Shown here: positions 3,154-31,009 of the stretch, piece by piece | Layout of the letters: each line of letters opens with the position of its first letter | How positions within the stretch are numbered: position 1 is the stretch's first letter | Assembly: GCA_012522765.1 (NCBI GenBank) | Contig: JAAYJW010000080.1 | Location: 1 to 33,808, forward strand | Reading direction: 5' to 3' | Origin: a candidate division WS1 bacterium | Lineage (GTDB): Bacteria; Armatimonadota; Zipacnadia; Zipacnadales; UBA5352 | Length of the DNA: 33,808 nucleotides | Made by a program: the position numbers and the translations under genes | Notes under the pieces: model-generated | The model's input: only the letters and a program-made list of their open reading frames with translations | What the model was told of the DNA's origin: nothing | Databases searched by the model: none

Positions 3154-4169
3154 GTAATCTGAACGATCGCATCCGACAACTCATAGCGAGCGCCTGCGAG
3201 CACATGCCGCTTGAGCAGGTCCCGCAGGACGCCTCTCTCGATGACATGCCTGAGTGGGATTCACTGGCTCATATCGCGCTGATCGAGCTTATTGAGCGCG
3301 AGTACGGGCGCACGATTCCGCCCGATCGCGTTGCGGAGTTACGATCGGTTGAGACGATCGCAAAGTGGTTGAGCGAGGACGCCGCGGAGGAGTCGGCCAA
3401 CGAACCAGCGGCGGCCGATGCCGATCTCGCGGGTGCATTGCGCGAGGCCGGGCTGACCGCCGGCGACATGGTGATGGTGCACAGCTTCACCGCCGCCCTC
3501 AGAGGCGTCGAGCGTCCCGATCGCGCGCTGATTGACGCCCTCCTCGGGGTCCTCGGCCCGGAAGGCACACTCGTGTTGCCAGCATTCACCTACTCCTTCT
3601 GCCGGACGCGTCTTTATCGGCCTGATGAGGATCGTTCGGAAGTAGGCGTCGCCGCGGATACTCTGCGGCTGGAGTATCAAGGGCGGCGCACCCTCGCGCC
3701 GATATTCTCCGTGGTGGCGAAAGGAGCGCGTGCTGAGGAGATCGCTGCCCTCAGCAGCCCCACCACCTTCGGGCCGGGCAGCATCTTCGACTACTTGCTG
3801 CAGAGCCGCGGTAAACTCTGCGGCGTCGGCGTCGGCTTTGAGAAGATCACCTTCAATCACTATCCTGAAGAGGAACTGCAGGTGCCCTATCGCTACTGGA
3901 AGCAATTTGACGGCGAGATGGAGCGGCGCGGAGATCGGGAGGCCGTCTCGGTGCGGTATTTCGTCAGAAGCCTGGAGCCTGAGGCGGTGCGAGACCAGTC
4001 GAAGATCGCCGCGCTGATGGAGAAGGCACCGTTCGCAAGGAGTGCAGCAGTGGCAGGGGCGGAGGTCGTCTGCGCGCCGGTGCAGCAGTACTACCGGCGT
4101 CTGCGCGATGCCATGATAGCCGATCCGCTCTTTCAGTTGAGCGATGCATCGCGTGGCCACTGGCACTGA
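3150..4169 (+). CDS. Acyl carrier protein fused to AAC(3)-family N-acyltransferase
   Basis: The protein is 339 residues with its start overlapping the previous stop (ATGA). Residues 1-77 are an acyl-carrier-like domain: MPEWDSLAHIALI holds Ser38 in the Asp-Ser-Leu motif that receives phosphopantetheine. An Ala/Glu-rich linker (78-95) leads to an AAC(3)/FrbF-type acyltransferase (about 96-339): GDMVMVHSF (His111), LGPEGTLVLPAFTYSF, VGVGFEKITFNHYPEE (His237) and VPYRYWKQFDGE. Family members usually take acetyl-CoA; in polysaccharide loci they are presumed to N-acylate amino sugars. The in-cis carrier suggests an acyl-thioester on the protein itself as donor, which is inference. The usual HP in the R-S/T-x-HP-x-FS segment reads LAPIFS here, so that His is absent. 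Neighbours imply surface glycan decoration rather than antibiotic resistance. Confidence 0.85.
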   Translation: MSNLNDRIRQLIASACEHMPLEQVPQDASLDDMPEWDSLAHIALIELIEREYGRTIPPDRVAELRSVETIAKWLSEDAAEESANEPAAADADLAGALREAGLTAGDMVMVHSFTAALRGVERPDRALIDALLGVLGPEGTLVLPAFTYSFCRTRLYRPDEDRSEVGVAADTLRLEYQGRRTLAPIFSVVAKGARAEEIAALSSPTTFGPGSIFDYLLQSRGKLCGVGVGFEKITFNHYPEEELQVPYRYWKQFDGEMERRGDREAVSVRYFVRSLEPEAVRDQSKIAALMEKAPFARSAAVAGAEVVCAPVQQYYRRLRDAMIADPLFQLSDASRGHWH

Positions 4170-8477: not shown

Positions 8478-10058
8478 CTACAAGTACTCCTCCGCATACC
8501 GCTTCGCCACCTCGATCACCTGCTCGACGCGCTCGGGAGCGTTAGCGATCGTGCCATCCACAAAGGTCACTGTCGGCCAGAGGTCCTGCCGCAGTTCGGG
8601 CAGCGCCCACGGGTTCGTGCCCATTTCATGGACGCCCGTTGATCCGCGTGACGGATCGCCGGTGTTCAGGTGCGCCCAGCGGCGGTTGTACTTCGCGAAC
8701 ACCTCGGGGAAGCGGTCCGGGCACCAGTGGTGGCTGACCGGGAAGATCGCGCCAAGCGGTGAATACCAGTGCTCGCAGGTAACCAGCAGTTCGGGGAAGC
8801 GCTCTTTGAGCCGGTCGCGCAGGCGCATCATCCCGTCGTAGACCGGGTGATTCGGATCGTTAGTCCATGAGCCGGCCGTATCGTAGAACGTCGCGTCCAC
8901 GCCGAACTGCTCGATGATGCGCGCGGATTCCTCGAAGAGCCGGTTGCCCCAACCCGGCGCCCCGGGATTGAGCCACGCCTGCCATGCCGTGTCATGCGCC
9001 CGCGCCACATCCCAGTCGGGCTTGTTCCCCTGCAGTTCCGCGCCGCCCGCCGAGCGAAGGCGGGAGTTCGCGCCCCACTGCTCAAAGCTCTCCAGTCCCG
9101 TGTTAGCGCAGTTGCAGCCGTACATCGGACAGATGCGCGCGCCGAGTTCATGCGCACCCTCGACGAGCCGCCGAAAACCCTCCTCGCCGCCAAGGCGCGG
9201 GTGTGGGCGGTAGTGGCCGTACTGCCAGTAGTAGCGGCCCTCCCAGCCGGGTAGGAAGGCGAAGACGCGCTTCCCCTCGATCCGCTCGCAGACCCACTTC
9301 AGCGCGTCGAGCGCATCCGCATAGGTGTTGAAGACGTAGCCGCTCCAGTGCATCATGTGTATCGCTGCGACGAAGCTGATCTCCCGCGCCCAGCCGGGAA
9401 CATCGGGCCGCGTCTCCCATGGCTGCAGCCCGAAGGCCGCTTCGGCATGCACCATCTGCGCGTCCGCGATCGTTTGCGGGTCTTCGCAGCGGCCGATCTC
9501 CCACACCGGCGCCTCCGTCTGGTTGGTCATCTCATGCCCGGCGTCCTCGTGGATAAGCTCAACCGTCACGCTGCCGTCGGCTGCACGGTAGACGGCGATG
9601 CGCTTCTCGCGCACGCGGTCATCCAGAGAGCGGAAGTAGCGCCATCGCCCGTCGGGGTCGCGCAGGAAGAGCAGCGGCACCGGCAGGCCTCCGCGCGGCC
9701 AGCCGAGGATCGTACCGCCATCGGGGATGTCGTGCTCCTGCAGCCGCGAGCCGATCAGCGTTCCGTCCGGCAGGCCGCTCACGATCAGCTTTGTGCAGCG
9801 AATCTTCTTCTCATGGCGGGCGCGGATCGTGAGGTGCAGGGCATCCGACTCGCCCTCCGAGGCAATCGTGACCTCCCCGCCGCATTGTTCCTGCCCGCCG
9901 GCCGAGCGCAGCCCGCAGGTGCTGATGCCGACTTCGTCACTCACAACCTGTTCGGGATCGAGCCCGTAGGTGTTCTCGAAGGTGATCACCTGCGCGCCGA
10001 TTTTCCACCCGGCAAGCTCATAGACCGGATCGCCGAAGTCGAAGCTGAACTGCTGCAT
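8478..10058 (-). CDS. Cytoplasmic TIM-barrel-like protein, unknown function
   Basis: The protein is 526 residues from ATG 10058 with GAGGAGG 7 bases upstream. There is no signal peptide. Residues 1-200 are beta-rich (FSFDFGDPVYELAGWKIGAQVITFEN), as in the galactose-mutarotase-like N-domains of several glycosidase families. Residues 230-500 look like a barrel: AREISFVAAIHMMHWSGYVF, KRVFAFLPGWEGRYYWQYG, LGARICPMYGCNCANTG, FGVDATFYDTAGSW and PELLVTCEHWYSPLG. FYDTAG and CEHWY are where a catalytic Asp and Glu would sit in such families. I do not recognise a named family; it recalls DUF6259-type glycosidase-like proteins. It follows the DUF4091 gene by 110 bp on the same strand, so an intracellular role on imported oligosaccharides is plausible but unproven. 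Confidence 0.7.
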   Translation of the reverse strand: MQQFSFDFGDPVYELAGWKIGAQVITFENTYGLDPEQVVSDEVGISTCGLRSAGGQEQCGGEVTIASEGESDALHLTIRARHEKKIRCTKLIVSGLPDGTLIGSRLQEHDIPDGGTILGWPRGGLPVPLLFLRDPDGRWRYFRSLDDRVREKRIAVYRAADGSVTVELIHEDAGHEMTNQTEAPVWEIGRCEDPQTIADAQMVHAEAAFGLQPWETRPDVPGWAREISFVAAIHMMHWSGYVFNTYADALDALKWVCERIEGKRVFAFLPGWEGRYYWQYGHYRPHPRLGGEEGFRRLVEGAHELGARICPMYGCNCANTGLESFEQWGANSRLRSAGGAELQGNKPDWDVARAHDTAWQAWLNPGAPGWGNRLFEESARIIEQFGVDATFYDTAGSWTNDPNHPVYDGMMRLRDRLKERFPELLVTCEHWYSPLGAIFPVSHHWCPDRFPEVFAKYNRRWAHLNTGDPSRGSTGVHEMGTNPWALPELRQDLWPTVTFVDGTIANAPERVEQVIEVAKRYAEEYL

Positions 10059-10119
10059 GGTGATGCCTCCTCATGGGACCACGTGGGCGCTGCCGATGCC
10101 GTTTCTCCCCCTGCGTTTC

Positions 10120-10141
10120 GCACGGACAGGAGTGTCCGTGC
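10120..10141. terminator. 9-bp-stem hairpin after the DUF4091 gene
   Basis: GCACGGACA and TGTCCGTGC form a perfect 9-bp stem around GGAG. It lies 28 bp downstream of the DUF4091 stop (minus strand) and before the next ribosome site. No U-run follows, so it may be a repeat or RNA-end stabiliser rather than a true terminator. Confidence 0.45.
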
Positions 10142-10168
10142 CACGGAACGGCTTCGCCCCGAGGGCGC

Positions 10169-12421
10169 TTACTCCGCCCCCTGCATGCTCACGATCGCCG
10201 CCGCGAGTTGTTCGCGGGCAGCATCTATCGCCTCCACGTCAAGCGTGTAGGGCTGATCATTCGCCGCGCGCACGGATGGCCATCGCTCCACCAGCGACAG
10301 CGCCGCCTCAAGCGCATCGCGGCCAACCTTCGCTGCCTCGGCGTTCCCGGCCGCCTCAAGCCGCTCCGCAAGCTGCTCGGCCATCACCATGTACTCAAAG
10401 TCCTCCAGTCCCTCGCGGAAAAGCTCCCAGCGGATTGAGTCGATCGGCCCCTGCTCGTCGGGCGTCCGCGGCGGGTAGAGCATCACGCCCGACGATCCCA
10501 CGCCTGCCGTCCACGGGTCCTCCCACTGGCCGCGCCAGCAGACCGTCCCCCACCACGAGTAGGTGCCATCTACCCCGTACTTGCGCAACAGCCACGGCCA
10601 CAGGCGCGTGCGAATCGGCTCGTGATCCACGATGTTCACCGCGTTGTTGTACACGAGCACCGTGTCTCCCTCGGCCCGTGCGGCCATGATCTGCGGGAGT
10701 GCCGCCTCCCAGGCATCGGTGTGCAGGATCCACGAGTGCGTGATGTCCATCAGGTCCGGATGAGGTGCGCTCACGGTGTGCAGGATTCGCAGTTCGGGCT
10801 CGATGTCGAGCAGCAGTTCGCTGATGGCGCGGATGCCGTTGCGCGTCCGCTCATCGGCCAACCGCGGTTCATCAATGAAGCGCACCATAGGGCTCAGGAA
10901 GACGCCCGCATCGCGATACGCCGCCACCAGCTTCGTCACATAGTCGCTGAACGGGCGCGTGAAATCCGCCGAAAGCTCCGTCAGGTCCTCATTCGCGAAG
11001 ATCGGAATGCCCTGCCAGGAGGCATCCGGCGGCATCATGTGGTCGCTCTTGTGCGAGATCCACAGCACCGGAAGGTCGAAGCGGTCCACGCCGTAGCTGT
11101 CCCGCATCATCACGAGGTGCTCGATGTATTGCGCGATGTTGAGTTCCACCGTGTCGCCCTGCACCTCGACGCCCACACTGACCGCGGGCGCACAGCGACT
11201 GCGATGGCCGTAGATGTTGTCATAGTAGCGCCGGATGACATCCTGCGGCTCTCCCGCCTCGCGCGGCAGCACGAGATTGTAGCGGAAGGCGGAGCGCACA
11301 TCCATGCTCGGCCTGGGCGGGATTGCGAAGTCATGCACGCGCAGGCGCAGCGGTACACTCGCAATCACGTCCTCACCGGAGAGGAGGCTGAGTTCGCCGC
11401 TGTAGTCACCGGGCGCCTGATCGGCGGGCACCTGTAGCGTGAACCAGAAGCCCTGGTTGAAGCTTGCGGGAATATCCACCGGCAGGCGCTCGGTCAGCGG
11501 GTCGGGGTTGAGGCCCTGGTGGCCGAAGGGGCCGGTGGTCTGCTGAATATCAACATGCTCAATGCGGCGGCAGCGGAGCGCATCGGTGGTGATCGTCGCC
11601 GGGCCGGTGAGGTCGCTCCAGGCGAAGCTCACGGTGCTCATATCCGTCTCCGGGGTCACCGCAAGCTGGAACGATTCGTATTCGCCACGCGCCGCTGTGA
11701 GTTCCACCGCGTCGGTGGTGGCATCCGGCAGATCCCGCTCCGGCAGGATCTTCCGGTTCTCGTCATCGGTCCAGAGTGCGCCGCCATTGAAACGCGCGAG
11801 CACTCGTGCGGTGTCTGTGACTTCAGCCTGCGCGCGCTCGGTGACAACGATGTCGTCGAGCCAGAGGCGCGCCTCCGGATTCTCGCTCGCCAGCTTGATC
11901 AGCAGCGACACCTGCTCCTCGGTCTCCGGGACTTTGAAGTCGCCCGCATCCGCATGCACCCAGCCACGCTCATCGGCACCCTCAACCCACACGCCCTCGA
12001 CGAACGCACCCTGCTGATCGTGGGGAAGCGTCACAATCGGCAGGTAAAGCCCCACCGTCTGCTCGCGCGCACCCACCGGATAGCGCACGTAGATGACCAC
12101 CTTCGAGGGGCCGTCCTCAGCGCGATAGTGAAGACTGAGGTTGCAGATGGACCCGGGCGTGACCGGGATCGTGGTGCTCCAGCCGCTGTTGAGGCCCTGC
12201 ATGCCAACGCTGCGAGCGCCAGTGTGCGCGATCTCATCATCCCACCAGCCGCGCGAGGCCTCCTTATCCCAGGCGTAGTAACTCCAGCCCACTGGAGCCT
12301 CGCCCTCGCCCTCCTCAAAGCCGGCGTTCGGAACAGCAGCAAGCCCATCCTGCGCTGAAGCGATACAACACGTTGCGGACAGCAGAACGATGATTGCCAT
12401 TGCCGAAGATTGCAGACGCAT
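10169..12421 (-). CDS. Secreted DUF4091 protein with N-terminal carbohydrate-binding-like domain
   Basis: The protein is 750 residues from ATG 12421, which has GGGAG 8-10 bases upstream; ATG 12436 adds MGVSE and lacks a ribosome site. A signal peptide ends near ATCCIASAQ. Residues 25-190 look like a jelly-roll binding module (NAGFEEGEGEAPVGWSYY, then WLDDIVVTE). Next come beta-sandwich segments (ARGEYESFQLAVTP, VPADQAPGDYSGELSLLSG), a barrel-like middle (MVRFIDEPRLADERTRNG, HTVSAPHPDLMDITHSWILH), and the C-terminal DUF4091 signature GVMLYPPRTPDEQGPIDSIR with EGLEDFEYMVM. DUF4091 proteins are glycosidase-like by architecture, and FIDEP is the likely active-site strand; activity is not established. 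It starts 24 bp after the membrane-anchored protein gene, so they share an operon. Confidence 0.85.
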   Translation of the reverse strand: MRLQSSAMAIIVLLSATCCIASAQDGLAAVPNAGFEEGEGEAPVGWSYYAWDKEASRGWWDDEIAHTGARSVGMQGLNSGWSTTIPVTPGSICNLSLHYRAEDGPSKVVIYVRYPVGAREQTVGLYLPIVTLPHDQQGAFVEGVWVEGADERGWVHADAGDFKVPETEEQVSLLIKLASENPEARLWLDDIVVTERAQAEVTDTARVLARFNGGALWTDDENRKILPERDLPDATTDAVELTAARGEYESFQLAVTPETDMSTVSFAWSDLTGPATITTDALRCRRIEHVDIQQTTGPFGHQGLNPDPLTERLPVDIPASFNQGFWFTLQVPADQAPGDYSGELSLLSGEDVIASVPLRLRVHDFAIPPRPSMDVRSAFRYNLVLPREAGEPQDVIRRYYDNIYGHRSRCAPAVSVGVEVQGDTVELNIAQYIEHLVMMRDSYGVDRFDLPVLWISHKSDHMMPPDASWQGIPIFANEDLTELSADFTRPFSDYVTKLVAAYRDAGVFLSPMVRFIDEPRLADERTRNGIRAISELLLDIEPELRILHTVSAPHPDLMDITHSWILHTDAWEAALPQIMAARAEGDTVLVYNNAVNIVDHEPIRTRLWPWLLRKYGVDGTYSWWGTVCWRGQWEDPWTAGVGSSGVMLYPPRTPDEQGPIDSIRWELFREGLEDFEYMVMAEQLAERLEAAGNAEAAKVGRDALEAALSLVERWPSVRAANDQPYTLDVEAIDAAREQLAAAIVSMQGAE

Positions 12422-12445
12422 CTCACTCACTCCCATGAAGTTCGG

Positions 12446-13465
12446 CTACTTGCGATCTACATCACGGCGCTGCCACAGGGCCGCTGTCCCCTCGTGTGGA
12501 CCGGGGAGGCAGCCCGAGCAGCTTGCCCGGCTGATGCTCGGGCGCACCTCGAACTCAAGCTCGGCCTCCAGCACCCATGCCCAGAAGCCGCCACCCTCCA
12601 GCGCGCGGTTCTCTCCGAGGTTCGCGTGGAAGGTCTCCTCCGTCAGATTCAGGCCGACATGATAGCGTCCGGGCGGCATCCGCAACTGCCCGGGCAACGG
12701 GCGATCGGGCTCCCACTCGCCGAAGAGGCCCACCTGCTGCTTCGCGCCGGCGGCGGACGCGGGATATGCACCGTGCGGACGCTCGACGGTATACCATCGC
12801 GGCGGCGTGTCGTTCGGCCCCCGCTCGCGCTGCCCCACTCGCCACAGCACATGCAGGCTGCTGTTGAGATCGAACTCGTGCTGCGTGTCACCCTCTGCAT
12901 CCGTCACGAGCCAGTCGAAGAGCAGGTAGCCCCGCACCTCATGTCCCTCGTCCACATGCTGCGCAAGCTCCGCATCGGTCACATTCCACTGGCAGTCCTC
13001 ACACCACCAGCGCCCGATGCGGCCAAGCTGCCAGCTTGACCACGCGCGCGGATCCGCCGCGTTGTCTTCCTCAGTGACGCCACGGACCGGTTCGAGGCCG
13101 ACAAGCTTCAGTTGATAGGCGAACGATGGCTTGAGGCCGACGGCTGTGAGAGTGCCGCGCAGCGACGGCGCCTGAGCTTCATAGCGGACCTCCGCACGAT
13201 GGCTATCGGTGTCGGAATAGCTGAAGGCGTCGCGAAAGCTCTGCGAGTAGGCGACTGCGGCAATGTCGCGCCAGCGTGGCTGCTGCGGTTCGGTGACCTC
13301 AAGCGGCTGGAGTAGCTCTTCACTGCGCTGAACCACGATTCCCGTCACCTCGTCAGGCGATGGCCGGTCTTGATAGATGAGGAGGTAGGCGATGCGCACA
13401 ATGATCCAGATAAGGAACACGATGAGCCACGGCGTCATGTTGCGCGCGGTCGGCCTCAATCCCAT
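12446..13465 (-). CDS. Membrane-anchored conserved protein with CxxC/HxxxxH knuckle
   Basis: The protein is 339 residues from ATG 13465 (AAAGGA upstream); GTG 13486 adds 7 residues and is also possible. One membrane segment lies at about residues 12-30 (MTPWLIVFLIWIIVRIAYLL), with the rest probably outside. The soluble part has GTLTAVGLKPSFAYQLKLVGLEP, then WWCEDCQWN-x9-HVDEGH, where Cys155, Cys158, His170 and His175 could bind zinc, then RGYLLFDWLVTDAEGD and LNSSLHVLW. I recall similar YQLKL...GRWWC...GYLLFDF...SSYHVLW patterns in uncharacterised archaeal and bacterial exported proteins, but cannot name the family. It heads a minus-strand set with the DUF4091 gene. Function unknown. Confidence 0.75.
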   Translation of the reverse strand: MGLRPTARNMTPWLIVFLIWIIVRIAYLLIYQDRPSPDEVTGIVVQRSEELLQPLEVTEPQQPRWRDIAAVAYSQSFRDAFSYSDTDSHRAEVRYEAQAPSLRGTLTAVGLKPSFAYQLKLVGLEPVRGVTEEDNAADPRAWSSWQLGRIGRWWCEDCQWNVTDAELAQHVDEGHEVRGYLLFDWLVTDAEGDTQHEFDLNSSLHVLWRVGQRERGPNDTPPRWYTVERPHGAYPASAAGAKQQVGLFGEWEPDRPLPGQLRMPPGRYHVGLNLTEETFHANLGENRALEGGGFWAWVLEAELEFEVRPSISRASCSGCLPGPHEGTAALWQRRDVDRK

Positions 13466-13527
13466 TGCTGCGGTCCTTTCGCTCACACGCTGCGACTTAC
13501 CTCGTTACCTGACGCATGTACAGTGAA

Positions 13528-13555
13528 ACGCGCGGACCTGATTGGGCCCGCGCGT
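13528..13555 (-). terminator. Terminator-like hairpin after the prepilin gene
   Basis: ACGCGCGG (13528-13535) pairs with CCGCGCGT (13548-13555) with two further G-C pairs inside. Read on the minus strand, the stem is followed by TTTCACTG, a short U-run. It lies 24 bp beyond the prepilin-like gene stop and upstream of the membrane-anchored protein gene. Confidence 0.55.
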
Positions 13556-13578
13556 CTGGTGGTAGTCGCATCGGAGGC

Positions 13579-14220
13579 TTATTCGCTCGGCTGCATGGGG
13601 TCCCAGTAGACCCGCTGGTTGACCTGGCTCTCGCGCGCCCACTTCACGTGGCCGTCCACGAAGCCATAGACGGTACCCTCGTTGTGCCGCTGCGGCCAGT
13701 TGTTCCCGGTAAAGCTGTTGTCGTCCGGAGCACCACAGACGGCGTTGTTCATGTCGTTGATGTACCAATCGCCGTCGGCGCCGGTATGCCATGGCGCGGC
13801 GGCGCCGATGGCCTCAGGGCGAACATCGCCGACGATGATCTTAGTCGACGGGTCCCAGAAAGACCCAAGCGACATGCCGCTGGCCATGTAGTTCATCGCG
13901 TAGCCCGGAGCCTTATCCTTGCGGTCGGGGCAGAACATGATCTGCCGGTTCCGGGTGTAGGGGAAGATGGCATTGTACCACTGGCTCTCGGGATCTCCGG
14001 CAGCAGCCTGGCCGCGTGGCAGAACCTCGTCGTAGTCCTGAGCGTACATGATCAGCGCCAGCGCGATCTGCTTGGCGTTGGAGATACATGCAGCCTGGCG
14101 GCCCTTCCCCTGAGCGCGGGAGAAGACCGGGAAGAGGATGGAAGCCAGAATTGAGATGATGGCAATTACTACCAGTAGCTCGATCAGGGTGAACCCTTTG
14201 CGTCCGCCGGGTAGGAACAT
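13579..14220 (-). CDS. Prepilin-type N-terminal methylation protein, DUF1559-like
   Basis: The protein is 213 residues from ATG 14220 with AGGAGGG 8 bases upstream. Leader LPGGRKG is followed by the type IV prepilin cleavage site G/FTLIELLVVIAI; cleavage before Phe10 and N-methylation by a PilD-type peptidase is expected. The hydrophobic helix runs to about residue 30, then SRAQGKGRQAACISNAKQIA and MYAQDYDEVLP, a pattern very common in Armatimonadota and Planctomycetota where dozens of such paralogues occur per genome. The globular part has FCPDRKD, YAMNYMASG and the C-terminal NEGTVYGFVDGHVKW, the H/G-x9-DG-like ending of this family. It probably acts in a surface or secretion pseudopilus. 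No other pilus gene is nearby, so it is an orphan copy. Confidence 0.92.
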   Translation of the reverse strand: MFLPGGRKGFTLIELLVVIAIISILASILFPVFSRAQGKGRQAACISNAKQIALALIMYAQDYDEVLPRGQAAAGDPESQWYNAIFPYTRNRQIMFCPDRKDKAPGYAMNYMASGMSLGSFWDPSTKIIVGDVRPEAIGAAAPWHTGADGDWYINDMNNAVCGAPDDNSFTGNNWPQRHNEGTVYGFVDGHVKWARESQVNQRVYWDPMQPSE

Positions 14221-14249
14221 GCGTAACGCCCTCCTTTGAGGGACGCGTC

Positions 14250-14279
14250 ATGATACAGATCACGATGATTCCATGTCTA
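14250..14279 (-). promoter_or_regulatory. Sigma70-type promoter of the prepilin gene
   Basis: On the minus strand, TAGACA (14279-14274) and TATCAT (14255-14250) are separated by 18 bases. The start would fall near 14243, giving a short leader that contains the AGGAGGG ribosome site. Judged by consensus match only. Confidence 0.5.
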
Positions 14280-14330
14280 TAGGTATTAACACCGACAAGC
14301 GCCCACATGTTTCCTGACACCTGCGGCGAT

Positions 14331-14364
14331 GGCCTTCATTTGACACAGATCGCAGATGAAGGCC
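14331..14364 (-). terminator. Hairpin after the GH2 gene
   Basis: GGCCTTCAT (14331-14339) and ATGAAGGCC (14356-14364) form a 9-bp stem with a 16-base loop, 9 bp beyond the GH2 stop on the minus strand. There is no U-tract, so this is a candidate terminator or 3'-end stabiliser only. Confidence 0.45.
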
Positions 14365-14372
14365 GCTCCACC

Positions 14373-17084
14373 TCAGCGGGAACCATCCATTCCGATCAGA
14401 AGCGTCACGCCGCAGGGATAGCGGCCTGCGCGCGAGCCGTAGATCGTGAGGCCCCCGCGGTCCCTCCCCGAATCAACTGACGCTATGCGCAGGCACAAGA
14501 TTCCGGTCTCCACCGCAGTTTTCACCATGGCCGCGGGGACCTGCAAGCGCACCAGGCGCCCATATCGCCCGAGGAAGCCGTGCATGTGCGACAGCGCCCC
14601 ACGAGAGTCCGCGGGCTGGTCATGAAGCTCAAGTGTGGTGATAGGCTCGTCCCCGACCGAGATCACTACCGTCGCAGGCCACGGGATCGAGCCGGTTTGC
14701 GGTGCTCCGGGTCGAGCGCTTGATAGTTCGGCAAGCAGCGTCACCGGCCCGATCTGCTCCGGATCGAGATCGTCCGGGAGGGCGAACTGATACTCAACCT
14801 GTCCGTCACCGGTGCCTGCAAGCAGGTGTGTCTCGCCCGCCACTTCGCCTCTCTCCACGCCCTCCGGGAAAGCAGCAACGCCATCGCCTGCGTCCACCGT
14901 GAGAACATTGTGCGACTTTTCCCCGCACACGCCCTCACTATCACCGACGACCTCGAAGAAGCTGAAGTTCAGCGCCGCCGGGTGGCCGCGATCATCTTCG
15001 AGAAGCGCCGCGATGCGGGCGAGACCGGCCTCTCGGGGCAGCGCCAGAGAGATCGCGCAGGCACCCTCTCCGTCTGCATTCAGGCCGCCGTCACGCGCGA
15101 TCAGCCTCTCGTACCCGAACCGGTCGGTGAAGGTTGCGCGCCACGTTACCCGCTGCGCCAGTTCGGCCTCCAGCTCTGAGGGGCGCAGGAACACCGGGAT
15201 GCTCACCTGCGACCCCGGAGCTACTGTCTGCGCCGGAGGCAGGTCGAAGCCCACGAAGAACTCGCCAAGCAGCAGCGCCGGATCGTAGCCGAACTGCTTG
15301 GGCGAGCGGTCGTAGTCGTAGAGGCCGTTATGCTCCCACTCGATGTCGGTGAGTTCCGTGTAGACATAGCCGCAGATCTTCTCGTGCCTACGCAGTTCGT
15401 TGGTCAGAAAGCGCAGGCACCATGAGACGTCGAGATCGCCCATCCGCGCGCCGATGCCCCCGTACTCGCTGTTGAGCAGCGGCTGATTGCCCTGCCGGTT
15501 GCCGCCCACGAAGTTGAACTGCGAGCCCTCAGCGGTCTGGGCGACGATATGCTCGACGTGCTCGCGCGCTTGCTCGTAGTCATTGATGTAGAAGTGCCAT
15601 GAGTTGATGTCGGTGATGACGTGATCGTAGAGGCAGGGCGAGTTGTCTTCGACCAGTCGCGTCGGATCAAGCTGCTTCGCCATCTCATAGCAGTTGCGCA
15701 CCCACGCCCGCCGGTCCTCGGCGGTGGCATACTCGCGCGAGCCAAGCCCCCACGTCTCGTTGAAGAGGCACCACGAGAAGATGCTCGGGTGGTTGAAGTC
15801 CCGCTTGATCTGCCCCCACGCGTTGCGCTCCCAGCGCTCCCGCGCAATCTCCGAGTAGCCCTCGTTGTCGAAGCCGGGCATGTCGCACATCAGCAGCACG
15901 CCGCAGCGGTCGGCCCAGTAGCAGTAACGGGGATCGGGTGTCTTAATATGCAGCCGCAGGAAGTTCAGTCCCGCCTGCTTCGCCAGTACGAAGTCTCGCT
16001 TGATCTCGGCGTCCGTCGGGTGGGTGTAGACGCCCGCCGGGTGGAAGCTTTGATCCAGCGCACCCCGGAGGTAGATCGGCTCGCCATTGAGGCGAATATA
16101 CATTGGGCCACCCTCATGCAGAGGGCCCGTGTCAATGTCGCGCATGCCAAACTGCGTTTGGATCGTATCGATGACCTCGCCAGCGCGAAGAAGCTGGAGG
16201 GTGGCGCGGTACATGTGCGGGCTGTCGGGCGTCCACGCTATCGGCCGCTCGATCTGCATCGGAACCTGCGCCCGACCGTCTTCGCCCACTGCTGCCGTGG
16301 CACTCCCGGCCTTCGCTCCCGTCGAAGCGCGCAGCTCAACGGCAACCGCCAGAGGCCCGTTCTCATGGCGGGAGTGTACCTGAACGGCAAACGCGGCCTG
16401 CGCGGAGGCGAGCGACGGTTGCACCAGCACCTCCGCTATGTGCGAGGCGGCGCGCGGCTCCAGCCAGACCGTCTGCCAGATGCCGCTGGTGCGCGTGTAC
16501 CAGCGCCGCGTCTGCTTGCCTATCGGCTGCGCGCTGTGATCCTCAGGATCCTGCACGCGGATGACCAGCCGGTTCTCTCCCGGCTGGAGAGCGCCGGTGA
16601 TATCGAAGGATAGCGGCAGGTATCCGCTCTCGCCGCCGCCCACCGTCTCCCCGTTCACCCAGACGCGCAGGTCCCAATCGGCCGCCCCGATATTGAGGTA
16701 GACGCGCCGCCCATCCCACCGCTGTGGCACGGTGAACTCGCGCCGGTACCAGCCGATGCTGTGCCGGGGCGCCTCGCGATAGTTATCCTGCGTGACCGCC
16801 TCGGGATGGAGCCACGCCTCGGCGGAGAACCAGTCCTCGTTGCCGGCGAGAGCCTCCGTGCCCCATGCCAGGTGGCTCTCCCACGGGAACGGAACGCGGA
16901 TGGTTCGACTAAAGCGATCCTCTGCGGCATTCTGCCAGCCCTCGTCAGCCCCCCGGTCATTGGGGTCGAACTCGAACTGCCAGTCACCGTTGAGGTTCAG
17001 CCAGTCGATGCCGTCTCTCAGGCCTCGGTGGAAGTCCGGCCGCGGGTGTTCGGGACGAGGGACGCTAATGTTCAGTTCGTCCAT
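14373..17084 (-). CDS. GH2 family beta-glycosidase (beta-galactosidase/beta-glucuronidase type)
   Basis: The protein is 903 residues from ATG 17084; the upstream in-frame 55 residues look non-coding. There is no signal peptide, so it is probably cytoplasmic. Domain order is classical: jelly-roll sugar-binding domain (about 28-210: WLNLNGDWQFEFDP, VPFPWESHL, GWYRREFTVP, GAADWDLRVWVNGE, RTSGIWQTVWLEP), an Ig-like domain (215-315) and a TIM barrel (about 320-610). The catalytic acid/base is Glu443 in FNETWG and the nucleophile Glu540 in NSEYGG; GYVYTELTDIEWEHNGLYDY is the standard barrel end. The C-terminal 290 residues are beta-rich accessory domains. It hydrolyses a terminal beta-linked sugar; galactose versus glucuronic acid cannot be decided by eye. 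It is divergent from the winged-helix/KaiC pair across about 225 bp. Confidence 0.93.
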   Translation of the reverse strand: MDELNISVPRPEHPRPDFHRGLRDGIDWLNLNGDWQFEFDPNDRGADEGWQNAAEDRFSRTIRVPFPWESHLAWGTEALAGNEDWFSAEAWLHPEAVTQDNYREAPRHSIGWYRREFTVPQRWDGRRVYLNIGAADWDLRVWVNGETVGGGESGYLPLSFDITGALQPGENRLVIRVQDPEDHSAQPIGKQTRRWYTRTSGIWQTVWLEPRAASHIAEVLVQPSLASAQAAFAVQVHSRHENGPLAVAVELRASTGAKAGSATAAVGEDGRAQVPMQIERPIAWTPDSPHMYRATLQLLRAGEVIDTIQTQFGMRDIDTGPLHEGGPMYIRLNGEPIYLRGALDQSFHPAGVYTHPTDAEIKRDFVLAKQAGLNFLRLHIKTPDPRYCYWADRCGVLLMCDMPGFDNEGYSEIARERWERNAWGQIKRDFNHPSIFSWCLFNETWGLGSREYATAEDRRAWVRNCYEMAKQLDPTRLVEDNSPCLYDHVITDINSWHFYINDYEQAREHVEHIVAQTAEGSQFNFVGGNRQGNQPLLNSEYGGIGARMGDLDVSWCLRFLTNELRRHEKICGYVYTELTDIEWEHNGLYDYDRSPKQFGYDPALLLGEFFVGFDLPPAQTVAPGSQVSIPVFLRPSELEAELAQRVTWRATFTDRFGYERLIARDGGLNADGEGACAISLALPREAGLARIAALLEDDRGHPAALNFSFFEVVGDSEGVCGEKSHNVLTVDAGDGVAAFPEGVERGEVAGETHLLAGTGDGQVEYQFALPDDLDPEQIGPVTLLAELSSARPGAPQTGSIPWPATVVISVGDEPITTLELHDQPADSRGALSHMHGFLGRYGRLVRLQVPAAMVKTAVETGILCLRIASVDSGRDRGGLTIYGSRAGRYPCGVTLLIGMDGSR

Positions 17085-17310
17085 CTTTTGATCCCCAGCA
17101 CAACTGTGATAGAACTCGCGGGCGTGCAGCGGTGTTCTGTATCGTACGGAGGGCAGGCGGAGTGTTTCGCTGGCCGGACCAATGCACCTTCCGTAGAGAA
17201 GCGGGGCGTTTCCCGCGATCGAGGGAGGATTCACCTGCCGCCGGGGCAAACCTTAGTATGCACCACCGGGCGGGGATGTGGGTTCCGTGAGCTACCACGG
17301 GCGCTGGCGG

Positions 17311-17709
17311 ATGATGCAGATGGATGAGCGCGTGCTCAAGTTCATTGAGGAGACTGCCCAGGACCTGGTTGGCCTCGACGTTGCTCTCTTCTTCCAGGCC
17401 AACCCCCGAGCCTTCGATACCGCCTCAGGTATCGCCCTGCGGACGCATCGTGCCGTGGAGGACGTCGAACCCGCTCTCGACCGGATGGCCGGGGATGGCT
17501 TCCTCGAGGTCTTCTCACGCGGCGATGGCCGCTATGAAGTCTTCGCGCTCTCCCCCGTGCCCGAGGTCTGGCGCACCCTCTGCCGCCTCAGCGAGGCATA
17601 TCACGAGGATCCCGATTCTCGCAAGGAGATCATTCTGCTACTGGTGCAGCGCCGGTTGCAGGAGCGCAGCATAGGCGGCCGCACTCCCGGAGGCAGGGCT
17701 GATGACTGA
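17311..17709 (+). CDS. Small winged-helix-like protein coupled to the KaiC fusion
   Basis: About 132 residues from ATG 17311; the frame is open upstream (GTG 17278, 17287) and no ribosome site clearly decides the start. VLKFIEETAQDLVGLDVALFFQANPRAF, IALRTHRAVEDVEPALDRMAGDGFLEVFSRGDGRYEVFALS fits helix-helix-recognition helix-beta wing, as in MarR- or ArsR-like and archaeal HTH proteins. The C-terminal third is helical (LCRLSEAYHEDPDSRKEIILLLVQRRL) and may dimerise. Its stop lies inside the next gene: ATG 17702 comes before TGA 17707-17709, an 8-base overlap, so the pair is translationally coupled and likely stoichiometric partners. A DNA-binding role is inferred from fold only. Confidence 0.7.
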   Translation: MMQMDERVLKFIEETAQDLVGLDVALFFQANPRAFDTASGIALRTHRAVEDVEPALDRMAGDGFLEVFSRGDGRYEVFALSPVPEVWRTLCRLSEAYHEDPDSRKEIILLLVQRRLQERSIGGRTPGGRADD

Positions 17710-20338
17710 CGCCGTGAGCACCGGCATTCCCGGACTCGACACACTTCTCGACGGTGGCCTGCGCCGCGGGTCGTGCACTCTGCTGGAGGGCATACCCGGC
17801 ACCGGAAAGACTACCATCGGCCTGCGGTTTCTCCACCATGGGGCGCTGGAGGGCGGTGATCCGGGCATCGCGATCACTTTCGAGCAGTTCCCCGAGCAGA
17901 TGATTGAGGACGTGGCGCAGTACGGCTGGGACCTCGCGGCGCTGGAGGATGAGGGGCTGCTCCGAATCATCTGCACCTCCCCGGACGTTTTTCTCGACCA
18001 ACTCAGCGAGATTGGCGGAATGATGGACCGGCTCGTCGGCGAGATGGGTGCGAGACGCATCGTCATTGACAGCGCCTCCCATCTCGCGCAGGTGAGCGAA
18101 GACCAGCGCGATCTGCGTTCCCTCTTCTACAGCATGATTAACGGCCTCAAGCGCGCGGGCCTCACGACGATCATCACCAAGGAGCTTGAGGCCGCCGAAA
18201 TCTCGCGCATCCCCTTTGAGGAATACCTCTGCGACACGGTCATCAGGCTCGACAACCGCCTGGTGAGCGGCTTTCGCCGCTGTCGCTACGTGGAGGTGGT
18301 CAAGTCGCGAGGGAAGGGCCACCGATCCGGCCGCCACGGCTTCGAACTCGGAGACGGGGGGCCGGTGGTCTATCCGCGCTACCGGCCACATGAGAGGCGG
18401 ACAGAGAGCACATGCGCGTCCGGTGTGCGCGCCTCCACCGGCATAGCCGGTCTCGACGGTATGCTCCACGGTGGCCTGCTGGTGGGCAACGCGACACTGG
18501 TGGCCGGCAGCGCCGGCGTCGGCAAGACGACGCTCGGCCTGCAGTTTCTCTGCGCGGGTGCCGAGGCGGGCGAACCCGGCCTCTATGTCACCTTCGAGGA
18601 GTCGCCCGCCAAGCTCGCCTGCCAGGCGCATGGCTACGGACTGGACATTGAGGGCGCGCAGAATGAGGGCCTGCTGACGATCATCCACGAGTTCCCCACC
18701 ACGGTCCGCTTTGAGAAGTTGCTGCTCGACATCGCGGAGCTCATCGAAACCCGCGGCATCAGGCGGCTCGTCTTTGACAGCCTCACCGACCTCGAGCTTG
18801 CCTTCGGCGGCGAGGATACCGTTCGCGAGGCGGTCTACGACCTCGCGAGCCTGCTCGACGCTCAGGGTGTGACCAGCATCGTGATCACGGAGGTGCCGGA
18901 GCTATTCGGCCAGACCTACGTTTCGGACGAGCATCTCTCGATCATCGTTGACGGCATCATCCTGATGAAGTACCTCGAACTGGAGAGCGAGATCCAGCGG
19001 GCCATGTCAGTGCTGAAGATGCGCGGCTCGGGTCACGACACCGGGATCTGGCGCTACGTCATCGGCGGATCGGGGATCGAGGTACAGGGACGCTTTGAGG
19101 GCGCCGAGGGCGTCATGGCGGGGGCCACGCGCACAACGAGCATCGCGCTCTCGGTGCGCAGCTTCAACGAGTTCGACGAGCAGTTCAACGCCGAGGTGCT
19201 CCAGCGATTCTCGCAGATACACCCGAACGTTCAGCCCGTATCGCTGAACCTCCCGTACAACCCCGACGAGGCGCTTGAGACGGTGCAGTCCGCGCTCAGG
19301 GCGCGCTCCACGCACCTTTCCGTCGCGCCGATGTGCCTCTACTGGACGCCCGATGTGGTCGCCGGGGGGCGGTTGCGTGAGGTAGGTAACCTGCTCTCGC
19401 CCGCCGAATGGCGCACGCACATACCGGAACTGGTGGAGCCGGCTCAAGTCGGCGAGATGATCTACGGCGTGCCCGCCATCGGCGTCTGCGGCACACTGCT
19501 CTTCCGCCGCGACCTGCTGGAGAAGCACGGCTTCCAGGCCGCCCCTTCGACGTGGGACGAGCTTGTCGAACAAGCGAAGAAGGTGCTGGCGGACGAGGGC
19601 AATGACCAACTGATTGGCTATCAGTTCCCCGGCTATCACTACGAGGGCCTCAGCAGCTCATTCCTCACGAACCTCTGGAGCAACGGCGGGCAGGTGGTGG
19701 ACGATGAGGGGCGCTGTGTCCTCGAGAGCGACGAAGCGCGGGAGACGATCCGCTTCATGCACGACGCGATCCACGTGCATCAGATCACACCGCGAAGCGT
19801 CACCTCCTACAGCGGTGGGCTTGAGCCGCAGGACGATCTGATTGAGGGACGCGCGCTCTTCCTATACATGCTCCCGAGCGTGCTGCAGGAGGTCAACCGG
19901 CCCAACTCACCGACCAGGGGGCGCGTGGGCGTCGCCGGTCCCCCTCACGGCCCCAGCGGCCAGCGCGGTTACAGCTACCTCGGCGGCTGGCACTTCGGCA
20001 TTCCGGTCAATGCACGCGCACCGGTGGCGGCAGGGCAGTTCATTCAGTACATGGCGAGCGCCGAGGTGCAGAAGGAGCGCGCCATGCGAGGCGGGCCGCT
20101 GCCAACGATCGCCTCGCTCTACCGCGACCCGGAGATCATCGCCTTCAACCCGCACTATCCGACGGTCTACGAACTGCTGCGCAGCGCCCGCAAGCGCAAT
20201 GACATCCCGCGCTACATGGAGGTCTCGCGTCTGATGCAGGACCACCTCCACCCGGTGCTGACAGGGCAGATCGCCCCCGATGCCGCTTTCGACGAACTCG
20301 TTGCTGCCGTGCGGGAGCTGATCCACCAAGACAACTAA
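17702..20338 (+). CDS. KaiC-KaiC ATPase fused to a family 1 solute-binding protein
   Basis: The protein is 878 residues with no signal peptide or membrane segment. Domain 1 (1-232): Walker A EGIPGTGKTT (Lys36), ITFEQFPEQ (Glu61-Gln62) and Walker B RRIVIDS (Asp123). Domain 2 (240-465): Walker A AGSAGVGKTT (Lys275), VTFEESP (Glu299-Glu300), Walker B RRLVFDS (Asp359) and the KaiC-type end VLKMRGSGHD. Residues about 480-878 are a MalE-like solute-binding protein: FNEFDEQFNAEVLQRFSQ, YGVPAIGVCGTLLFRRDLLEKHGF, STWDELVEQAKKV, LWSNGGQVVDDEGRCVLES and GGWHFGIPVNARAPVAAGQF. KaiC-like ATPases form hexamers that switch with ATP state; family 1 binding proteins normally work outside the membrane with ABC permeases. 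Here the binding fold is cytoplasmic and no permease is nearby, so a ligand-sensing ATPase is inferred. The frame is continuous, with no sign of a misassembled junction. Confidence 0.9.
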   Translation: MTDAVSTGIPGLDTLLDGGLRRGSCTLLEGIPGTGKTTIGLRFLHHGALEGGDPGIAITFEQFPEQMIEDVAQYGWDLAALEDEGLLRIICTSPDVFLDQLSEIGGMMDRLVGEMGARRIVIDSASHLAQVSEDQRDLRSLFYSMINGLKRAGLTTIITKELEAAEISRIPFEEYLCDTVIRLDNRLVSGFRRCRYVEVVKSRGKGHRSGRHGFELGDGGPVVYPRYRPHERRTESTCASGVRASTGIAGLDGMLHGGLLVGNATLVAGSAGVGKTTLGLQFLCAGAEAGEPGLYVTFEESPAKLACQAHGYGLDIEGAQNEGLLTIIHEFPTTVRFEKLLLDIAELIETRGIRRLVFDSLTDLELAFGGEDTVREAVYDLASLLDAQGVTSIVITEVPELFGQTYVSDEHLSIIVDGIILMKYLELESEIQRAMSVLKMRGSGHDTGIWRYVIGGSGIEVQGRFEGAEGVMAGATRTTSIALSVRSFNEFDEQFNAEVLQRFSQIHPNVQPVSLNLPYNPDEALETVQSALRARSTHLSVAPMCLYWTPDVVAGGRLREVGNLLSPAEWRTHIPELVEPAQVGEMIYGVPAIGVCGTLLFRRDLLEKHGFQAAPSTWDELVEQAKKVLADEGNDQLIGYQFPGYHYEGLSSSFLTNLWSNGGQVVDDEGRCVLESDEARETIRFMHDAIHVHQITPRSVTSYSGGLEPQDDLIEGRALFLYMLPSVLQEVNRPNSPTRGRVGVAGPPHGPSGQRGYSYLGGWHFGIPVNARAPVAAGQFIQYMASAEVQKERAMRGGPLPTIASLYRDPEIIAFNPHYPTVYELLRSARKRNDIPRYMEVSRLMQDHLHPVLTGQIAPDAAFDELVAAVRELIHQDN

Positions 20339-20446: not shown

Positions 20447-20809
20447 ATGCGTGCACTGGTTCCGACCGCCGTCCTGCTGCTTCTGCTCGTTACCTCCGCC
20501 TATGCAGTCGCGCCGGTCGTCACTGTCCCGATCCAGGTTTCGCCGGCCACCATCATCCTCAAGGCCCCCTGTCAGTGGATCACAATCCACGCGGATATTG
20601 ACTACGCGGCTGTGAACGCGTCAACAGTCGCTATCAACGGACTTGACGCCGAGGCTGTTTTCCCGGACAACCGCGGCGACCTCGTAGCGAAGATCAGCTT
20701 CGAGAGCATCATCAGTGGACTCGAGCCCGGAGAGACGACGATCACGCTCACCGGTGTCACCACGGAGGGCACAGCCTTCAGTGGCTCTTCGACGGTTCCG
20801 GTGAAGTAG
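20447..20809 (+). CDS. Small secreted Ig-like beta-sandwich protein
   Basis: The protein is 120 residues from ATG 20447 with GAGGAGTGA 6-7 bases upstream. The signal peptide is MRALVPTAVLLLLLVTSAYA. The rest is a single beta-rich domain: VSPATIILKAPCQWITIHADI, NASTVAINGLDAEAVFPDNRGDLVAKISFE, LEPGETTITLTGVTTEGTAFSGSSTVPV. This resembles the Ig-like repeats appended to cell-surface proteins, where DLVAKISF and GETTITLTG are typical strands. There is one Cys, so no disulfide. Such proteins may bind minerals, pili or glycans, but nothing here fixes a role. It lies 108 bp after the KaiC fusion and is followed by a strong hairpin. Confidence 0.8.
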   Translation: MRALVPTAVLLLLLVTSAYAVAPVVTVPIQVSPATIILKAPCQWITIHADIDYAAVNASTVAINGLDAEAVFPDNRGDLVAKISFESIISGLEPGETTITLTGVTTEGTAFSGSSTVPVK

Positions 20810-29326: not shown

Positions 29327-31009
29327 CTACCGGCCCTCGATCATCTCCGCGAGGCGCTCGCGAGCTTTCGCGTAATCGGACTGGTCCTTGCTCCAGTCCT
29401 GGAATGAGGTGGTGATATCCGCGACGATCTCGTCCACCTGCGCTTCCGAGTTCGGCACTCGCACGACCTCCATCCGCTCAGCTCCCATCACCGTCTGGAT
29501 GCCACCGGTGCCCCCGGAAGCGGCCGCCATCACCATGTACTCGTAGTCCTCCATCGCCTCGCGCACGAGCTTCAGGCGGATTGACGAGACCGGCCCGTCG
29601 AGCCCCGCCGGCTGCCCGGGGTAGAGCAGCATCCCCTCGCCCCAGTAGCGCTCGCGGAACAGTGGCGCCTCCCAGACGCCCTCCATCGTCTCGGGCACCC
29701 AGTAGACGCTCGACCAGTAGAGGAAGCCGGTGATGTCGTAGTGCCAGCTTGTCCAGAACGGCGCCCGGAAGTGCAGCGGGTCCATGTCTATCTGCCACCA
29801 TGGAGTGCCCTCAGGTCCCTGGCAGAGGGCGGTGTAGCTCCACAGCCTCTCCCCCAGCGCCAGCCGCTCCTCAGCCGTCGGCTCGTCAAACAGCCCCCAC
29901 AGCGGGCACCAGATGTCCACCGCGCCGTAGAGGTCGCCCCACTCCGGCTTGCTGGGCTTCGTCTGCTCGGTGCACATGCGCGCGATCTCCGGATCGGCCT
30001 CGTGGATCAGCGCGCCCTCCTGGCGGACGATCTCATACTCCTCGGCGTCGTTCGGCTCGTCCTTCATGTAGATGTAGCCGAGGTCCAGGTAGCCCATGCC
30101 ACGCAGCCACTCGGCGTTTGCGGCGAGGAACGCCTTCGCCTTCTCGGGATCGTCCCGATACGAGAACGGCATCCGCAGAGCGTTGACGTGCTTCTCTTCG
30201 ACCAGCTGGCGCATCCACTCGTCCTCGCCGTCCACCTGCAGGCCATCCTCCGGCGTCCATGCGGGCCAGAGTTTCCCGAACGAGCTTGGCATAGCACGAT
30301 GCGCCAGGAACTCGTCGATGTAGAGGCGCTCGATGGCCGCGAACTCCTCGCTTGAGGCGTCCATCCCGATGGCTTTCGCTACGCGGCTGCCGAGGCCACC
30401 GAAGTTCGACCGCATGGAGGTCTCGGCGGGAAGTTCGAAGTCCCACACGCGAAGCTCCACCGGCACCTGCGCGAGTTCAATGTCGCCCGCAGCGACGGTG
30501 ATGCTGCCGACGTACTTGCCCGCTTCGGTGCCCGGTGGCACGAACAGGTCCACCCACACTTCGGCGTTCTCGCCCGGCTCCACGTCGAATGGAGCTGCAT
30601 CGTAGGTGGCGCCGGAAAGCTCCTCGCCCGTCTGCGGGTGGCGGAACGGGATCAGTGCGTCGGGATAGTAGCCGACCGGGTTCTCCGTCCGGTAGCTGGG
30701 CTCCGTCACATTGACGTAGTGGGCCCGGTAGAGCGTGAGGTTGAAGGCGGAGATCGCTCCACCCGGGCCGTTGAGGCTGCTTGTCACCACATGGACGTTG
30801 CGAAGTGGCCGATCGCCGGCGTGCACGATCAGCCGGAAGGGCTCGTATTCATTCGCCGCCGCGCGCAACTGTGCCGACGGCTGTTCGCGCGGCGGTGTGT
30901 CCCTGAGCACGCGCTCCCATGGCGAAGCGACCCAGACCGTTGCATCCTGCTGGGCGAACGCCGCCAGCGGCAGCAGCGCCAGCATGACAATCAGTAGCGG
31001 TACCTGCAT
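29327..31009 (-). CDS. Secreted DUF4091 protein
   Basis: The protein is 560 residues from ATG 31009 with GGGAGG 8 bases upstream. The signal peptide MQVPLLIVMLALLPLAAFAQ is followed by a beta-sandwich region (AAANEYEPFRLIVHAG, VPPGTEAGKYVGSITVAAG), then a barrel-like part with LGYIYMKDEPNDAEEYEIV, where Asp-Glu in MKDEP sits at the likely active site, and AVDIWCPLWG. The DUF4091 end is GEGMLLYPGQPAGLDGPVSS then IRLKLVREAMEDYEYMVMAA. It lacks the binding module found in the other DUF4091 protein here (10169-12421). Glycan hydrolysis is presumed from fold; no substrate is known. It lies 36 bp downstream of the 31046-33328 gene, so the pair is an operon. Confidence 0.85.
   Translation of the reverse strand: MQVPLLIVMLALLPLAAFAQQDATVWVASPWERVLRDTPPREQPSAQLRAAANEYEPFRLIVHAGDRPLRNVHVVTSSLNGPGGAISAFNLTLYRAHYVNVTEPSYRTENPVGYYPDALIPFRHPQTGEELSGATYDAAPFDVEPGENAEVWVDLFVPPGTEAGKYVGSITVAAGDIELAQVPVELRVWDFELPAETSMRSNFGGLGSRVAKAIGMDASSEEFAAIERLYIDEFLAHRAMPSSFGKLWPAWTPEDGLQVDGEDEWMRQLVEEKHVNALRMPFSYRDDPEKAKAFLAANAEWLRGMGYLDLGYIYMKDEPNDAEEYEIVRQEGALIHEADPEIARMCTEQTKPSKPEWGDLYGAVDIWCPLWGLFDEPTAEERLALGERLWSYTALCQGPEGTPWWQIDMDPLHFRAPFWTSWHYDITGFLYWSSVYWVPETMEGVWEAPLFRERYWGEGMLLYPGQPAGLDGPVSSIRLKLVREAMEDYEYMVMAAASGGTGGIQTVMGAERMEVVRVPNSEAQVDEIVADITTSFQDWSKDQSDYAKARERLAEMIEGR

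What the first reader, a model, noticed from the sequence alone, without database searches (positions are those of the whole stretch)
17311..20338. KaiC-KaiC-solute-binding-protein fusion coupled to a winged-helix protein
One continuous 878-residue frame joins two KaiC-type ATPase domains to a complete family 1 (MalE-like) solute-binding domain without a signal peptide. Its start overlaps the stop of a small winged-helix-like gene by 8 bases. Family 1 binding proteins normally work outside the membrane with permeases, yet none is in the window. Inference: an intracellular ligand sensor in which binding-fold closure sets the ATPase or oligomer state, with output through the coupled DNA-binding-like partner. 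I know of no described system with this architecture.
Basis: partly seen in the sequence, partly recalled or inferred. Interest (0 to 1): 0.85.

Follow-up and report, generated by a model that had tools for sequence, protein, structure and literature searches.

The report
KaiC ATPase fused to sugar-binding-type sensor
A family of uncultured sediment bacteria carries a protein that joins a circadian-clock-type ATPase (KaiC) directly to a domain normally used outside the cell to catch sugars, always encoded together with a small winged-helix protein, so it is probably an intracellular metabolite sensor of a kind I found no description of.

Summary
Window 17702-20338(+) encodes 878 residues: two KaiC domains, then a complete MalE-type binding domain, with no export signal. 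Its start overlaps by 8 nt the stop of a winged-helix gene (conserved start 17320). It is not an assembly accident: the fusion is in 23 of 291 genomes of the phylum (Armatimonadota): all 10 genomes of its family, most others in its order outside one streamlined family, and one genome of another order. This binding-domain type was never seen unfused. The winged-helix gene sits immediately upstream in all 23 loci where that stretch is held.

The junction falls just after the KaiC A-loop, the switch that KaiA or a C-terminal coil works in known KaiCs. The pocket is conserved but remodelled: Trp763, Tyr647-Glu648 and Arg832 are invariant, while a sugar-contacting Asp and a probable second one are conserved Cys. 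Best explanation: a cytosolic ligand-gated KaiC hexamer working with the winged-helix partner. In one genome the pair precedes CheY-MCP-CheA genes. Ligand and output are unknown. New variant of KaiC signalling proteins.

The parts
17320..17709 (+). Winged-helix partner gene (129 aa from the conserved start; 132 aa from 17311)
   Evidence: Upstream of the fusion in 23/23 loci with upstream sequence, overlap -8/-4/-1 nt in most; AlphaFold2 pLDDT 91.8, winged-helix secondary structure; Foldseek hits MarR-type regulators
17702..20338 (+). KaiC-KaiC-solute-binding-domain fusion, 878 aa
   Evidence: conserved in 23 genomes
17714..18379 (+). KaiC domain 1 (CI-like), Walker A GTGKTT from residue 33, K36, E61, D123, K201/R203 invariant
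18428..19087 (+). KaiC domain 2 (CII-like), Walker A from residue 272, E300, D359, K439/R441 and S413 (position of KaiC Ser431) invariant
19091..19132 (+). Junction RFEGAEGVMAGATR (residues 464-477), which aligns with the KaiC A-loop region (FERIISGSPTR); binding domain starts directly after it
   Evidence: PDB KaiC sequences align to query residue 475-480; R464, F465, E466, G467, G470, G474 invariant in 19 sequences
19133..20335 (+). MalE/trehalose-maltose-binding-type solute-binding domain with remodelled cleft (C545, C596, Y647-E648, W763, R832)

Best explanation
The locus encodes a two-protein intracellular signalling module. The KaiC half forms a two-ring ATPase hexamer (inferred from homology). 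Six solute-binding domains sit on the CII ring, each attached right after the A-loop, the element that sets KaiC kinase/phosphatase balance in known systems. A small molecule in the cytosol closes the binding domain (inferred). This shifts the A-loop, and with it nucleotide turnover and/or phosphorylation at the invariant Ser413 (the Ser431 position) (inferred). The co-translated winged-helix protein reads or modulates that state and passes it on, either by protein contact into a phosphorelay or by DNA binding (output undetermined). Shown here: the fusion and its conservation, its constant translational coupling to the winged-helix gene, the junction at the A-loop, intact ATPase motifs, an invariant binding cleft, and no export signal. 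Inferred: oligomer, ligand, allostery, output.
For: Fusion in 23 of 291 phylum genomes, full length or cut only by contig ends. Close relatives of this binding domain (E <= 1e-45) never occur unfused. All three domains diverge at about the same rate, so the whole is under selection. Winged-helix gene adjacent in 23/23 loci, mostly overlapping by 8, 4 or 1 nt. The winged-helix/KaiC-KaiC pairing is older than the fusion: it occurs without the binding domain upstream of seven further KaiC-KaiC genes in other Armatimonadota (L135-L139, L156, L157), a weaker case is L047, and one relative (L070) keeps the pair without the binding domain. Junction aligned to the A-loop in KaiC structures; the A-loop is a known switch (PMC6378743), and C-terminal extensions near it are a known KaiC regulatory device (PMC10076222). 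Signalling context: wHTH-fusion-CheY-MCP-CheA-REC-KaiC in one run in L067; a KaiC-KaiC-cupin protein (L087) shows another small-molecule-type domain at the same C-terminal position.
Against: No ligand, oligomer state or ATPase data. The aspartate mutated in the Thermus relative (D118) is Cys596 here, a probable second one (D70) is Cys545, and R49 is not conserved, so the domain may not bind a sugar, or possibly any ligand. The winged-helix gene also survives without any neighbouring KaiC in f3 genomes (L118-L126), so it has a role of its own. The chemosensory linkage is seen in one genome only, and the window's own genome has no MCP. No conserved operator was found upstream.
Confidence: 0.55

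Rival explanations
1. One reading: the fusion is a sugar sensor whose winged-helix partner is a transcription factor, for example controlling the divergent family 2 glycoside hydrolase gene.
For: Winged-helix fold; a GH2 gene lies divergently upstream in nine of ten loci of the family and, at 46-55% identity, next to or near the pair in four loci of family f4, so the pairing outlasts family divergence; nearest solved relatives of the binding domain bind maltose, trehalose or sulfoquinovose.
Against: Acidic recognition helix and protein; no conserved operator; GH2 is not the neighbour in L049 or in families f2, f6, f7; sugar-contacting Asp replaced by Cys.
Confidence: 0.2
2. The binding domain no longer binds ligand; it is a structural cap or interaction surface on the KaiC ring, and the module signals through KaiC alone.
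For: Two acidic cleft residues lost; one relative keeps the pair without the domain (L070), as do the distant KaiC-KaiC operons.
Against: Cleft residues W763, R832, Y647, E648, Y547, W548 are invariant at about 50% overall identity; the domain evolves about as slowly as the ATPase; the model fits closed, ligand-bound structures best (TM 0.83-0.85), though its confidence is modest.
Confidence: 0.12
3. A timekeeping device: a KaiC hourglass or clock with a built-in metabolic input.
For: Double-domain KaiC with intact ATPase motifs and the Ser431 position kept.
Against: Thr432 position is Ile/Val; KaiB is clearly present in only 2 of 41 related genomes and lies beside a different KaiC (G000:C243, G003:C24); far below the circadian KaiC model cut-off (261.9 vs 546.25 bits).
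Confidence: 0.05
4. A transport component, the binding domain serving an ABC permease.
For: Homology to transport binding proteins.
Against: No signal peptide, fused behind a cytosolic ATPase, no permease on the contig, and the genome's C190 permease pair has its own binding protein.
Confidence: 0.02

Closest known systems
Cyanobacterial and other double-domain KaiC (PF06745; PDB 8zn5, 1tf7, 8dba)
   Same: Two RecA-like domains, Walker motifs, trans-acting K/R, A-loop segment, Ser431 position
   Different: Thr432 position is Ile/Val; about 400-residue binding domain after the A-loop; KaiB only beside another KaiC
Rhodobacter KaiC with C-terminal coiled-coil extension (PMC10076222)
   Same: Regulatory extension grafted next to the A-loop
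   Different: Extension there is about 50 residues of coil; here it is a whole ligand-binding domain
MalE3 of Thermotoga (6dtq), Thermococcus trehalose/maltose-binding protein (1eu8), Thermus alpha-glycoside-binding protein (6j9w), SmoF (7ofy)
   Same: Same fold and family (E down to 7.5e-75 with the profile); Trp and Arg of the cleft kept
   Different: Cytosolic and fused; Asp118 (and probably Asp70) replaced by Cys; Arg49 not conserved
Archaeal KaiC-like signalling hubs (Makarova et al. 2017, cited in PMC5847659)
   Same: KaiC ATPases with lineage-specific fused signalling domains
   Different: KaiC-REC and HalOD1 fusions are mentioned in the paper read; no solute-binding fusion
KaiC-KaiC-cupin protein of another Armatimonadota genome (L087)
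   Same: Small-molecule-type domain C-terminal to two KaiC domains
   Different: Cupin instead of binding protein; no winged-helix gene adjacent

Membership tests
KaiC, double-domain (PF06745) | Two KaiC RecA-like ATPase domains | tested here: met
KaiC, double-domain (PF06745) | Walker A, catalytic Glu and trans K/R in both rings | tested here: met
   K36, E61, D123, K201, R203, K275, E300, D359, K439, R441 invariant; the other Glu of the pair is Q in 12/19 in CI and E in 17/19 in CII
Circadian clock KaiC | Adjacent Ser/Thr (or Ser/Ser) phosphorylation pair in CII | tested here: not met
   Ser413 invariant but next residue Ile/Val
Circadian clock KaiC | KaiB (and KaiA) partner; score above TIGR02655 cut-off | tested here: not met
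   KaiB over cut-off in 2 of 41 relatives, beside another KaiC; 261.9 vs 546.25 bits; KaiA not searched
Family 1 solute-binding protein (PF01547) | Complete fold above the curated cut-off | tested here: met
   80.3 vs 26 bits; Foldseek TM 0.83-0.88 to MalE3
Family 1 solute-binding protein (PF01547) | Export signal and cognate ABC permease | tested here: not met
Family 1 solute-binding protein (PF01547) | Sugar-contacting cleft residues | tested here: inconclusive
   W287 and R356 equivalents invariant; D118 and probable D70 equivalents Cys; R49 not conserved
MarR-like winged-helix regulator (partner) | Winged-helix fold | tested here: met
   weak Pfam MarR_2 hits in 4 of 23
MarR-like winged-helix regulator (partner) | Basic recognition helix for DNA binding | tested here: not met
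   net charge of recognition helix -1 to -3 in 22 of 23, 0 in one; invariant Arg41 and Arg44 nearby leave some doubt
KaiC-based signalling protein | Demonstrated ligand- or signal-dependent ATPase or kinase output | not testable with these tools
   needs biochemistry

The most novel reading that the evidence does not exclude
A metabolite-gated KaiC: ligand closure of a binding domain grafted onto the A-loop directly switches KaiC ATPase/autokinase activity, replacing KaiA. Two conserved cysteines in the cleft (C545, C596) make the ligand a thiol-reactive, redox or metal signal rather than a plain sugar.
Probability: 0.2. Interest if true: 0.85.

Novelty: new variant of a known kind. Interest (0 to 1): 0.66.

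Why it matters
KaiC is the core of the only well-understood protein clock, yet what the many KaiC homologues outside cyanobacteria sense is mostly unknown. Here evolution has placed a recognisable ligand-binding domain on the very switch that KaiA works in the clock, in a conserved two-gene module. If the ligand is found, it would show directly how a KaiC ring reads metabolism, and it offers a natural single-chain system for testing A-loop control. It would also be a case of an exported nutrient-binding fold reused as a cytosolic sensor.

Tried and rejected
Assembly chimera: rejected, 23 genomes. Horizontal one-off: rejected, the KaiC tree broadly follows the organisms' families, though the base of the fusion clade is unresolved and unfused paralogues (L071-L075) fall near it. 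Upstream operator: no conserved palindrome; a GCAGGAA-like element upstream in several loci is not convincingly enriched. PDB lectin hits of the partner: repeat-driven chance matches. A free-standing parent of the binding domain in the phylum: none at E <= 1e-45, and the weaker ones lack most of the key cleft residues. Other long frames with binding-domain matches (L079, L080, L083, L084): L080, L083 and L084 are binding-domain-plus-permease frames and L079 an unassigned N-terminus plus binding domain; none is a KaiC fusion. Plasmids: no record covers 80% of the fusion. Literature: no paper found on a KaiC/solute-binding fusion; the Zipacnadia paper does not mention KaiC. Makarova et al. 2017 is not held, so that comparison is second-hand. 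Fusion outside the phylum was tested only by a pattern scan that finds close relatives, so it is not excluded.

Full report
What is there. The frame 17702-20338 (+) gives 878 residues. Pfam finds KaiC twice and a full SBP_bac_1 domain. KaiC starts at the very N-terminus, so there is no room for a signal peptide, and no 19-residue stretch looks membrane-spanning. The gene before it ends 8 nt inside the fusion gene. No permease domain is on the contig; the genome has two permease pairs elsewhere, one (C190) with its own binding protein.

Is it real and conserved? Yes. The genome is a draft of class Zipacnadia (Armatimonadota), judged from its near relatives. Full-length homologues at 63-74% identity are in the other nine genomes of its family, at 49-55% in families f2, f4 and f6 of the order, and at 51% in G286 of another order. 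With a profile of the binding domain, 23 of 291 phylum genomes match at E <= 1e-45, every time in the fused frame or, in two draft genomes, in frames cut by contig ends. The rest of the phylum has only KaiC-KaiC proteins at the threshold used. Losses are concentrated in family f3, with mostly small genomes, and f5. Identity to the window is similar in KaiC-I, KaiC-II and the binding domain within each homologue, so the three parts have evolved as one protein.

The partner. A gene of about 129 residues lies directly upstream in all 23 loci where upstream sequence is held; the overlap is 8, 4 or 1 nt in 19 of them, 41 nt in two (with a longer fusion N-terminus), and there is a gap of 8-9 nt in two. 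One of the 23 is L070, which lacks the binding domain. AlphaFold2 gives a confident winged helix (pLDDT 91.8) and Foldseek returns MarR-type regulators. Pfam has no family for it. It is acidic (pI 4.7-6.1) and its recognition helix carries net charge -1 to -3 in 22 of 23 members, unlike a typical DNA-binding winged helix. Relatives are N-terminal domains of cytosolic histidine kinases with or without PAS, and of a GAF-PAS-cyclase. This points to a signalling adaptor at least as much as to a transcription factor.

Origin. Winged-helix/KaiC-KaiC pairs without the binding domain occur in other classes and families: L135, L136, L137, L138, L139, L157 and, more weakly matched, L156. In the KaiC tree the fusion proteins cluster by organism family. 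So the likely order of events is an old winged-helix/KaiC pair, then addition of the binding domain before the order diversified. L070 (G016) has the pair with KaiC ending at the junction and no binding domain. Some f3 genomes keep the winged-helix gene with no KaiC nearby.

The junction. Solved KaiC sequences align with the query up to residues 475-480; the last aligned segment, FERIISGSPTR in KaiC and RFEGAEGVMAGATR here, covers the A-loop (residues 488-497, PMC6378743). The binding domain therefore starts where the KaiA-binding tail would be. The Nature 2023 study of Rhodobacter KaiC calls the C-terminal tail a primitive regulatory moiety and shows a coiled-coil extension near the A-loop (PMC10076222). 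A binding domain here would be a second, independent way of working that switch. This step is inference from position.

The ATPase. Walker lysines, one catalytic-position glutamate in each ring (E61 in CI; E300 in CII), Walker B aspartates and the K/R pairs are invariant; the second glutamate position of CI is Gln in 12 of 19. The Ser431 position is invariant serine (S413), the Thr432 position is Ile/Val. KaiB scores over its cut-off in only two of 41 related genomes, beside a different KaiC. A standard KaiABC clock is unlikely.

The binding cleft. Nearest solved relatives are MalE3, trehalose/maltose-binding protein, the Thermus alpha-glycoside-binding protein and SmoF, by sequence and fold (TM 0.83-0.85; the model itself has mean pLDDT 68). 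Depositors mutated R49, D118, W287 and R356 in the Thermus protein (titles). Here the W287 and R356 equivalents (W763, R832) are invariant, D118 aligns with C596 (Cys in 18, Ser in 1), and R49 aligns with a non-arginine position. A second aspartate in the motif LDVIW, D70 from my own knowledge of these proteins, aligns with invariant C545. Y647-E648 and Y547-W548 are invariant too. The cleft is thus under strong selection but remodelled; the ligand need not be a common disaccharide. Whether the two cysteines are close enough to form a disulfide or bind a metal could not be measured here.

Neighbours. A GH2 gene lies divergently upstream in nine of ten loci of the family and next to or near the pair in four f4 loci (46-55% identity to the window's), an interesting but not universal link. 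In f6 the neighbour is an S24-peptidase-type protein, in L067 a heparinase-type protein. In L067 (G286) the fusion is followed 30 nt later by CheY-like, MCP, CheA, CheY-like and a further KaiC-KaiC gene on the same strand, the best hint that the module belongs to signal transduction. It is one locus, and the window's own genome has no MCP.

Verdict. I file it as a new variant of KaiC-based signalling proteins, not as a clock and not as a transport protein. I found no published description in the open-access library searched; subscription papers and full architecture databases were not available.

Noticed in passing
L067:10662-16658 (G286:C216): CheY-like, MCP, CheA, CheY-like and a second KaiC-KaiC gene (582 aa, weak HisKA match at its C-terminus) follow the fusion in one same-strand run.
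   Followed up: partly
L087:6554-8413 (G270): KaiC-KaiC protein with a C-terminal cupin domain: another small-molecule-type domain at the same C-terminal position.
   Followed up: partly
L140, L141, L143, L145, L146, L150 and others: The partner's winged-helix type is the N-terminal domain of cytosolic histidine kinases (with or without PAS) and of a GAF-PAS-guanylate/adenylate cyclase.
   Followed up: partly
G000:C243:1022-2833: The window's genome has a separate KaiC-KaiC (499 aa) followed by a KaiB gene; the same pair is in G003, and KaiB over the cut-off was found in none of the other 39 relatives searched.
   Followed up: no
L118-L126: Close relatives of the winged-helix gene with no KaiC nearby; in the g8 and g19 loci a conserved gene of about 233 aa lies beside it, convergently, so the protein has a KaiC-independent role.
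   Followed up: no
window 3150-4169 (+): Phosphopantetheine carrier domain fused to an aminoglycoside 3-N-acetyltransferase-type domain (PF02522), an unusual pairing.
   Followed up: no
window 8478-17249 (-) and 29327-31009 (-): Carbohydrate-enzyme-rich surroundings: GH2 (14373-17249) and two GH123-like genes (10169-12436, 29327-31009), with a pilin-like gene (N_methyl/DUF1559, 13579-14220) between.
   Followed up: partly
window 20447-20809 (+): Small gene with a signal-peptide-like start (MRALVPTAVLLLLLVTSAYA) right after the fusion; similar gene at that place in L052, not conserved beyond.
   Followed up: no
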